Shown: positions 7,275 through 57,424 of the stretch, piece after piece | Layout: each line of letters starts with the position of its first letter | How positions within the stretch are numbered: position 1 is the first letter of the stretch | From: Pseudomonadota bacterium | GTDB lineage: Bacteria; Desulfobacterota; Desulfobulbia; Desulfobulbales; Desulfocapsaceae | Length of the DNA: 61,593 nt | NCBI GenBank assembly: GCA_018821785.1 | Contig: JAHJLI010000095.1 | Span: 1 to 61,593, forward strand | Direction: 5' to 3' | Position numbers and translations under genes: made by a program | The notes under the pieces: model-generated | Seen by the model: the letters and a program-made list of their open reading frames with translations, nothing else | Databases searched by the model: none | What the model was told of the DNA's origin: nothing

Positions 7275-7346
7275 CCCGGTAAACGGGATTGAAATAATCT
7301 CATAAGCACAAATGCCTCAAGGTCTCCAGGAGATACCTTGGCTTAT
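7275..7346. repeat. repeat core (copy E) plus intergenic hairpin
   Basis: CCCGGTAAACGGGAT at 7275-7289 is identical to the small-hairpin core of the repeat at 57352-57366. It is followed by a separate two-part hairpin: ATAAGC (7302-7307) pairs with GCTTAT (7341-7346), and CAAGGT (7318-7323) with ACCTTG (7335-7340). The region lies between the hybrid kinase gene and the TIGR04076-like gene, both leftward, and could end or separate the transcripts. There is no T-run, so it is not a standard terminator. Confidence 0.5.
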
Positions 7347-18790: not shown

Positions 18791-19149
18791 TGTTCCTCGT
18801 TTCCCAAGATAGCTGTGGCATGGAAGGTTGAAAGTCACAGGACAGACTATATCCTGCAACGCAGCCGAGATAAAGGATTTCCAGTGGTTTTTGCCAAATT
18901 CTAAGAATGCACAGATGATTAATATTAAGTAAATATCAAAAATATATTTGACATATATTTCATTGTGTGTAACTACTTTCTTCAACGTAACACTGGCAGC
19001 CGGAATCCCTGGAACATGCAAATACTCCGTGCTTCTTTTGCTAACACCGACAAACCGGATACGTACCTTCATGAAATTCATCCTTAAAAACAAGAAATGA
19101 ATTTCTAAGGTTCTAATCGGACATCTTGCCACCTTTACCCCCCGATGCC
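18791..19149. promoter_or_regulatory. araC/gntR divergent intergenic region with inverted repeat and possible promoter
   Basis: A 359-base AT-rich gap. AAATATAT (18940-18947) and ATATATTT (18953-18960) form a perfect 8-bp inverted repeat around a 5-base centre. A TTGACA (18948-18953) overlaps it and could be a rightward -35 for gntR, but the -10 box is poor. Copy B of the dispersed repeat fills 19047-19113. No gene is seen. Confidence 0.35.
19047..19113 (+). repeat. dispersed hairpin repeat, copy B
   Basis: CCGACAAACCGGAT forms the small-hairpin part. The long hairpin pairs GTACCTT (19063-19069) with AAGGTTC (one mismatch) and GAAATTCAT (19073-19081) with ATGAATTTC (19097-19105). Order, spacing and sequence match copy A (57351-57422). 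It lies just upstream of the gntR start at 19150. Confidence 0.75.
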
Positions 19150-22845: not shown

Positions 22846-22880
22846 CCCGGGTAAACGGGATACATTCCTTGACGAAAAAT
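22846..22880 (+). repeat. dispersed hairpin repeat, half copy D overlapping pxpA start
   Basis: CCCGGGTAAACGGGATA followed by CATTCCTTGACGAAAAAT matches the first half of copy A (small hairpin, then CCTTCACGAAATT). The second arm is missing: the match runs into the ATG of pxpA at 22879. The hairpin lies where the ribosome would bind, and no better ribosome site is visible. Confidence 0.6.
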
Positions 22881-52024: not shown

Positions 52025-52094
52025 CCCCGACAAACGGGATAGTTATCTTCACAAAATTCATTCTAAAAACCAGAAAAGAATGTCCCAGGATACT
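52025..52094 (+). repeat. dispersed hairpin repeat, copy C
   Basis: CCCCGACAAACGGGATA gives the small hairpin (CCCG 52026-52029, CGGG 52035-52038). The following part (GTTATCTTCACAAAATTCATT.., AAGAATG.., AGGATACT) is a diverged long hairpin in the same order as copy A. It sits in the 134-base gap between tgt and yajC, in the opposite sense to their transcription. Confidence 0.7.
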
Positions 52095-52114
52095 AAAAAC
52101 TTGGTGCAAAGTAA

Positions 52115-57274: not shown

Positions 57275-57350
57275 ACCGGTTAAGAACTCATTAAAAGGGT
57301 CTTGCTATCGTCCGCGACGGACTTGCTGCCATTGGCGCCTAAGCGACAAT

Positions 57351-57424
57351 CCCCGGTAAACGGGATAAGTACCTTCACGAAATTCGTTTATGAAAGAATA
57401 GGAAACGAATTTCTAAGGTACTAA
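57351..57424 (+). repeat. dispersed hairpin repeat, copy A (best copy)
   Basis: Small hairpin CCCG (57352-57355)/CGGG (57361-57364). Long hairpin: AGTACCTT (57368-57375) with AAGGTACT (57415-57422), and GAAATTCGTTT (57379-57389) with AAACGAATTTC (57403-57413), loop of 13 bases. All 19 pairs are perfect. It ends 13 bases before the AOR start codon at 57437 and would lie in its mRNA leader. Confidence 0.85.

What the first reader, a model, noticed from the sequence alone, without database searches (positions are those of the whole stretch)
57351..57424. Dispersed two-hairpin repeat of about 75 bp in several intergenic regions
Copies at 57351-57424, 19047-19113 and 52025-52094 share a small CCCG/CGGG hairpin (loop GTAAA or ACAAA), GGATA, then a long hairpin with arms near AGTACCTT..GAAATTC and GAATTTC..AAGGTACT. 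A half copy is at 22846-22880 and the 15-base core alone at 7275-7289. Copies differ in sequence but keep pairing (GAAATTCGTTT/AAACGAATTTC in A, GAAATTCAT/ATGAATTTC in B), so structure seems to be kept. No gene explains it. It may be a non-autonomous mobile element, a REP-like family or a structured RNA.
Basis: seen in the sequence. Interest (0 to 1): 0.75.

Follow-up and report, generated by a model that had tools for sequence, protein, structure and literature searches.

The report
Mobile hairpin repeat in sulfate-reducer genomes
A short DNA piece that folds into hairpins sits between genes in well over a hundred places in this bacterium, appears to have jumped recently, and belongs to a family whose way of moving does not match the known palindromic repeats.

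Summary
The window copies belong to a family with 150 model matches in the same 5.47-Mb genome (scoring stopped at 150) and matches in 28 of 57 related genomes, apparently Desulfobulbales. A unit is: target YTAA, small hairpin, ATA, long bulged hairpin, CTAA. 144 of 150 copies lie outside predicted genes. Empty sites in sister genomes show that whole units insert. The right CTAA belongs to the element; no target duplication is seen. It behaves like REP/BIME or IS200/IS605-derived repeats, but the GTAG foot is absent (0 of 150) and 1 of 36 Y1 transposase loci examined has a copy nearby. Sister G005 has 85 matches and no Y1_Tnp hit. In the window's genome covariation is not clearly above chance; in G005 it is very strong, almost without G-T pairs, and units form arrays with locus-specific arms. 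Best explanation: a non-autonomous, CTAA-targeting, hairpin-dependent mobile DNA element; enzyme unknown. New variant of a known kind.

The parts
57347..57350 (+). left target tetranucleotide, here CAAT (family preference YTAA)
   Evidence: family statistics
57351..57424 (+). full copy A; ends in the element's own CTAA (57421-57424); 12 bases lie between it and the ATG (57437) of an aldehyde:ferredoxin oxidoreductase gene
   Evidence: (97.8 bits)
57352..57364 (+). copy A hairpin 1 (CCCG-GTAAA-CGGG)
57368..57422 (+). copy A hairpin 2: base stem AGTACCTT/AAGGTACT (57368-57375 with 57415-57422), CAC/T bulge, upper stem 57379-57389 with 57403-57413
19045..19116 (+). full copy B, after CTAA (19041-19044), ends in CTAA; upstream of a GntR/FCD regulator gene
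   Evidence: (69.6 bits)
52025..52096 (+). full, partly decayed copy C, after ATAA, between tgt and yajC; empty in sister G004
   Evidence: (59.5 bits)
22846..22880 (+). possible 5' half copy (hairpin 1 and start of hairpin 2) before a LamB/YcsF family gene
   Evidence: only 19.4 bits, E 0.6
7275..7289 (+). hairpin-1 motif alone (CCCGGTAAACGGGAT), possible remnant
   Evidence: no model match

Best explanation
It is a non-autonomous mobile DNA element of about 72-75 bp (longer forms about 100-150 bp) with no coding capacity. SHOWN: at the sites compared it is inserted as one unit 3' of a YTAA-like tetranucleotide; its own right end is CTAA; no target duplication is seen; it lies in either orientation, nearly always between genes. 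INFERRED: it moves while single-stranded or extruded. Hairpin 2 is the recognition structure (base stem, NNN/T bulge, A-rich terminal loop), and the CTAA shared by target and right end is the cutting and joining site, as the end tetranucleotides are in IS200/IS605. Because the element carries CTAA (TTAG on the other strand), insertion at a C-TAA or T-TAG stop codon recreates the stop, which would explain the excess at gene ends. In G005 the unit has grown into local tandem arrays whose last hairpin is kept complementary. The enzyme acts in trans and was not found; it is probably not a linked RAYT.
For: 150 model matches in the own genome; 28 of 57 genomes and 16 of 36 genera. Empty sites: tgt/yajC site reads ATAA|AAACTT in G004; the C41 copy (L125_778) is empty in G001 as AACTAA|ATATCC and in G004 and G006 at CTAG|ATTTCC (47). 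Of nine own copies compared, six gave paired flanks in relatives and none of the six had a model match at the same position. No duplication: of the 80 best copies 34 lack TAA on the left; 21 of these have TAA on the right and 1 has right equal to left; with left TAA it is 30 of 46. 144 of 150 copies outside predicted ORFs in regions 80% coding. Stop-codon ends 14 and 14 of 150 against 4.0% and 3.7% of eligible CTAA sites, p 0.003 and 0.001; 15 of 40 in G005. Tandem units join at CTAA in L073 and L079. Modular longer forms.
Against: No transposase linked: 1 of 36 Y1_Tnp loci examined (36 of 265 matches) has a copy within 1.5 kb, and another ORF lies between. G005: 85 matches, 0 PF01797 hits at E<=0.001. 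No orientation bias against GC skew, 79 v 70, p 0.51, though IS200/IS605 elements use the lagging strand. No guide tetranucleotide recognised. At the tgt/yajC site G001 carries a differently sequenced element at the same position (50.3 bits), and G006 and G014 weaker ones (19.5 and 19.3 bits; seen by eye), which simple insertion does not explain. G003 has a copy in the other orientation in the same gap as the C41 copy.
Confidence: 0.62

Rival explanations
1. A REP/BIME family proper: moved by a RAYT (TnpA-REP, Y1 HUH) encoded in the genome.
For: High copy number, extragenic, hairpins, mosaic and tandem arrangements, no duplication; the own genome has 6 Y1_Tnp matches and 50 of 57 genomes have at least one (24, 27).
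Against: No GTAG, GTGG or CGTC at the hairpin feet on either strand in 150 own copies (146 for two of the four feet; 100). Two RAYT-like genes of the own genome have other ends: GGGTCAGAGTAAATTTA (30) and GGGACAGATTTA (read by eye, 48). Copies do not cluster at the 36 Y1 loci examined. G005 has 85 matches without a PF01797 hit.
Confidence: 0.15
2. A structured RNA (cis-regulatory leader, terminator or small RNA) kept by selection at many genes.
For: Strong two-sided changes in G005. In 19 of 80 own copies with a same-strand gene downstream the start codon comes 12-22 positions after the element. In longer forms hairpin A is followed by a T run.
Against: Sense and antisense about equal (43 and 40; 12 and 12 in G005). 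Only 2 of 826 paired cells in G005 are G-U (90). Covariation not clearly above chance in the own genome. No Rfam family reaches its threshold on an element. No terminator-like call at window copy A (97).
Confidence: 0.12
3. A MITE of a DDE transposon (for example IS630-type, TA duplication).
For: One G034 copy (L285) runs from the left half straight into a reading frame that I took, from recall and without a family search, for an IS630-type transposase start, at a contig end (55, 57).
Against: The two ends are not terminal inverted repeats of each other. Left TA is absent in 28 of the 80 best copies while most of these keep CTAA on the right. The L285 junction CCT-TA also fits an insertion sequence that landed in an existing copy.
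Confidence: 0.08

Closest known systems
REP / BIME repeats with RAYT (TnpA-REP)
   Same: Many extragenic hairpin copies, sequences that differ between species, mosaic and tandem groups, proposed mobility of ssDNA hairpins (passages of PMC3733652, PMC8266576, PMC6006769); local homogenisation and a tendency to gene ends are recalled
   Different: No GTAG, GTGG or CGTC foot, two unlike hairpins per unit, CTAA target and end, no linked RAYT found
IS200/IS605 derivatives (PATE name recalled)
   Same: Hairpins near both ends, a tetranucleotide at the right end and one flanking the left end, no target duplication
   Different: No TnpA gene found with these ends among the loci examined; no lagging-strand bias in 149 copies
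Integron attC sites (recalled)
   Same: Conserved ends with variable but complementary stems, often at a stop codon
   Different: Dispersed rather than in a cassette array; attC boxes not recognised by eye; no integrase search made
MITEs and bcr-type repeats (bcr recalled)
   Same: Short, non-coding, dispersed, mobile
   Different: The true ends are not inverted repeats and no duplication is seen

Membership tests
REP (RAYT-associated) | GTAG or GTGG tetranucleotide 0-2 nt 5' of the hairpin foot | tested here: not met
   0 of 150 (two feet) and 0 of 146 (two feet), both strands, own-genome copies
REP (RAYT-associated) | RAYT gene flanked by the repeats | tested here: not met
   copy within 1.5 kb at 1 of 36 Y1_Tnp loci (all 6 of the own genome and 30 from relatives, of 265 matches in all), and there not flanking; the other 229 were not examined
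REP (RAYT-associated) | High copy number, extragenic, palindromic | tested here: met
IS200/IS605 derivative | No target duplication; insertion 3' of a preferred tetranucleotide | tested here: met
   on the left YTAA is a preference only, CTAA in 47 of 150
IS200/IS605 derivative | Ends shared with an element that encodes TnpA | tested here: not met
   ends of the Y1 loci examined differ (19 read by eye)
IS200/IS605 derivative | Lagging-strand orientation bias | tested here: not met
   79 v 70, p 0.51, with regional GC skew as proxy
DDE MITE | Terminal inverted repeats and target duplication | tested here: not met
Known Rfam RNA | Score at or above a family's gathering threshold | tested here: not met
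   only 6S RNA and a tRNA, which are neighbouring genes, pass; other hits on elements are far below threshold
Integron attC | IntI-type integrase and R/L core boxes | not tested
   no genome search was left; boxes compared by eye from recall only

The most novel reading that the evidence does not exclude
A hairpin element family that moves and multiplies without RAYT or any Y1 transposase: an unknown recombinase acts on single-stranded hairpins at CTAA, preferring stop codons, and a DNA-level process keeps the two arms complementary. In G005 the internal units of an array share its locus-specific 5' arm while only the last unit closes the long hairpin, which would point to a new templated way of growing and correcting palindromes.
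Probability: 0.2. Interest if true: 0.85.

Novelty: new variant of a known kind. Interest (0 to 1): 0.6.

Why it matters
If right, it adds a palindromic-repeat family, seen so far almost only in MAGs labelled Desulfobulbales or close to it, that seems to spread without the enzyme thought to drive REPs. G005 offers a natural experiment for telling DNA-level palindrome correction from RNA selection, and the CTAA/stop-codon habit explains how a genome can tolerate well over a hundred insertions.

Tried and rejected
RAYT/IS200 as linked mobiliser: the Y1_Tnp loci examined have other ends. Larger element with a gene between the two ends: no such pair in the own-genome stretches held (1.61 Mb counted with overlaps) and ordinary genes between the neighbouring copies that were scanned (9 genes). 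IS630 (L285): judged an insertion into a copy, not proven. Plasmid and phage collections and IMG/VR: no match to the consensus or pattern used. Tandem duplication carrying the left flank as origin of the internal 18-nt arms in G005: considered; the flank was not found and equal arm length (15 of 22) speaks against it; left open. Terminator role: not called at window copy A. attC: by eye from recall only.

Rows dropped and biases: L011 (broken right end) was left out of A1, so 29 of 30 loci plus two window copies. G005 units were picked by a pattern that fixes the start of the 5' arm, a CTAA-type end and, for terminal units, TTTCTAA; decayed copies are therefore not among the 40, several pairs of the 98.9% are fixed by the pattern (not columns 19-30 with 41-52), and 50 G005 loci were held. 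One search used stricter filters. The ORFs are from my own simple gene caller. The CTAA expectation includes CTAA of the elements. A facing stop at the right end could also arise by truncation of a gene; that would give the -3 and -11 frames equally, and 14 v 5 and 15 v 2 were seen.

Full report
CHECK. Copy A is exactly 57351-57424; copies B and C extend to 19045-19116 and 52025-52096. Copy A folds as described, with no shuffle of 200 as stable. A blastn search of the own genome (G000, 5,470,697 bases, 315 contigs) found 40 places covering at least 64 of 72 bases. A covariance model R1 from 31 copies matched all 150 candidates that were scored of 2928, E 1.9e-17 to 0.007. Scoring stopped at 150, so more may exist; the weakest few are doubtful. 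The left-hairpin motif alone occurs 152 times with at most 2 mismatches against 1 for the reversed control.

ANATOMY. Own-genome consensus: YTAA | CCCCGGTAAACGGG ATA AGTACCTT CAC GAAATTCGTTT ATAAAAAACAAG AAACGAATTTC T AAGGTACT AA. Hairpin 1 is small. Hairpin 2 has a base stem, an unequal CAC/T bulge and an upper stem. In other genomes hairpin 1 can differ completely and still pair (CCCCC/GGGGG, CCCAGC/GCTGG), and the base stem can change on both sides (AGTGCCTT/AAGGCACT, AGAACCTT/AAGGTTCT). The own genome also has longer forms with hairpin A, a T-rich spacer, hairpin B and sometimes hairpin C before hairpin 2, for example C296:25747 and C170:29978. By eye about a dozen of the 22 own-genome places that fitted a loose pattern are clear. 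Short forms look like forms that kept one of these hairpins (inference).

DISTRIBUTION. 28 of 57 genomes (own included) and 16 of 36 genera had a match at E <= 0.01; those genomes are the window's own, its genus, family and order. A strict pattern scan of 84,980 species genomes gave 45 stretches. 42 carry Desulfobulbaceae, Desulfocapsaceae, Desulforhopalus, Desulfobacterales or delta-proteobacterial labels; three carry other labels (Proteobacteria, Fibrobacterota, Chloroflexi), perhaps misbinned. Several of these contigs have the same length as contigs of the unnamed relatives (for example 46,453 bases), from which I take the order to be Desulfobulbales. The pattern came from this subfamily, so the range is a lower bound. 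No match in plasmids, phages or the IMG/VR pattern scan.

MOBILITY. At the tgt/yajC site the own sequence reads ATAA[element]AAACTT and G004 reads ATAA|AAACTT. A copy on C41 (L125_778) is empty in G001 (AACTAA|ATATCC) and at CTAG|ATTTCC in G004 and G006. Of nine own copies put through, three gave no paired flanks and six did (one of them with a poor, distant pair); none of the six has a model match at the same position in the relatives. G003 has a copy in the same intergenic gap as the C41 copy, at another position and in the other orientation. Against a simple story: at the tgt/yajC site G001 carries an element of different sequence at the same position (50.3 bits), and G006 and G014 carry weaker candidates seen by eye (19.5 and 19.3 bits, E about 0.3).

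ENDS. Over 150 copies the left four bases are CTAA 47 times and otherwise degenerate; the right four are CTAA 77 times (positions counted from the ends of the model match, so indels can shift them). In the 80 best copies 34 lack TAA on the left; of these 21 have TAA on the right and 1 has the same letters on both sides; with TAA on the left it is 30 of 46. So the right CTAA is part of the element and there is no duplication.

CONTEXT. 144 of 150 copies do not overlap a predicted ORF, in regions that are 80% coding. Between genes of one direction 43 are sense and 40 antisense. 14 of 150 begin directly at a TAA stop and 14 of 150 supply a TAG stop to a facing gene, against 4.0% and 3.7% of eligible CTAA sites (p 0.003 and 0.001); 5 more of the copies outside ORFs end a facing gene in another frame. 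In G005 15 of 40 supply the facing TAG stop and 2 the other frame (p 5e-12 against the G000 expectation). In 19 of 80 own copies with a same-strand gene downstream, its start codon comes 12-22 positions after the element, as at copy A before the aldehyde:ferredoxin oxidoreductase gene. GC skew shows no orientation bias, 79 v 70.

COVARIATION. In the own genome it is not clearly above chance: 3 pairs with two-sided change (40 of 500 shuffles as high), paired cells 46 of 500, covariation score 9 of 500, while slid controls give 2-5 two-sided cells against 3. In G005 the picture reverses. 40 complete hairpins picked by pattern pair in 98.9% of cells; 12 of 22 pairs change on both sides (1 of 500 shuffles as high), in 83 cells against 14.2 in shuffles (0 of 500), and slid controls give 8-13 cells. 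Only 2 cells are G-U. The hairpins hold 28 distinct decamers in 40 copies. The near absence of wobble pairs fits pairing at DNA level (inference).

ARRAYS IN G005. 15 of 39 loci with a complete terminal unit also have internal units. 17 of 22 internal units have the same decamer as the terminal unit of their locus, yet their 3' arm differs (5-12 of 18 letters equal), with equal length in 15 of 22. Hairpin units of about 27 nt repeat in front in L396 and L410 (read by eye). Local homogenisation is the simplest reading; why the 3' arm differs at equal length is unexplained.

MOBILISER. Y1_Tnp (PF01797) matches occur in 50 of 57 genomes, 6 in the own genome, none in G005 at E <= 0.001. Of 265 matches in all, 36 loci were examined; 1 has a copy within 1.5 kb. 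Two RAYT-like genes of the own genome have other ends. Nine genes between close pairs of copies that were scanned are ordinary. The enzyme is unknown.

REP TEST. No GTAG, GTGG or CGTC stands at the feet of either hairpin on either strand in the 150 own-genome copies.

LITERATURE. Four searches (listings only) showed no paper on such a repeat in Desulfobulbales; only open-licence PMC text was searched. REP features were taken from passages of PMC3733652, PMC8266576 and PMC6006769, not from whole papers.

VERDICT. A non-autonomous mobile hairpin element that works like REP or IS200/IS605-derived repeats but meets neither membership test in full; a new variant, with an unexplained and interesting array form in a sister genome.

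Noticed in passing
L395, L396, L397, L399, L400, L424 (G005): Tandem arrays whose internal units share the locus-specific 5' arm but have another 3' arm of equal or nearly equal length; only the last unit closes hairpin 2.
   Followed up: partly
window 52025-52096; L138, L137, L148: G001, and less surely G006 and G014, have elements of different sequence at the same tgt/yajC position.
   Followed up: partly
L285:1-151 (G034 contig end): A left half copy runs directly into what looks by eye like a promoter and the start of an IS630-like reading frame (name from recall).
   Followed up: partly
L130, L132 (own genome): RAYT-like genes with their own ends GGGTCAGAGTAAATTTA and GGGACAGATTTA.
   Followed up: no
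L376:7799-7972: 6S RNA gene (69.7 bits) next to a long-form copy at L376:8005-8139.
   Followed up: no
alignment A3 columns 7-8 with 61-62 (G005): A two-base mismatch in the base stem of the 40 complete G005 hairpins (partly fixed by the pick pattern); on the other strand it reads as tandem G-A.
   Followed up: no
L113:12904-13276: A stretch 94% identical to G006 between two copies, probably an insertion sequence fragment.
   Followed up: no
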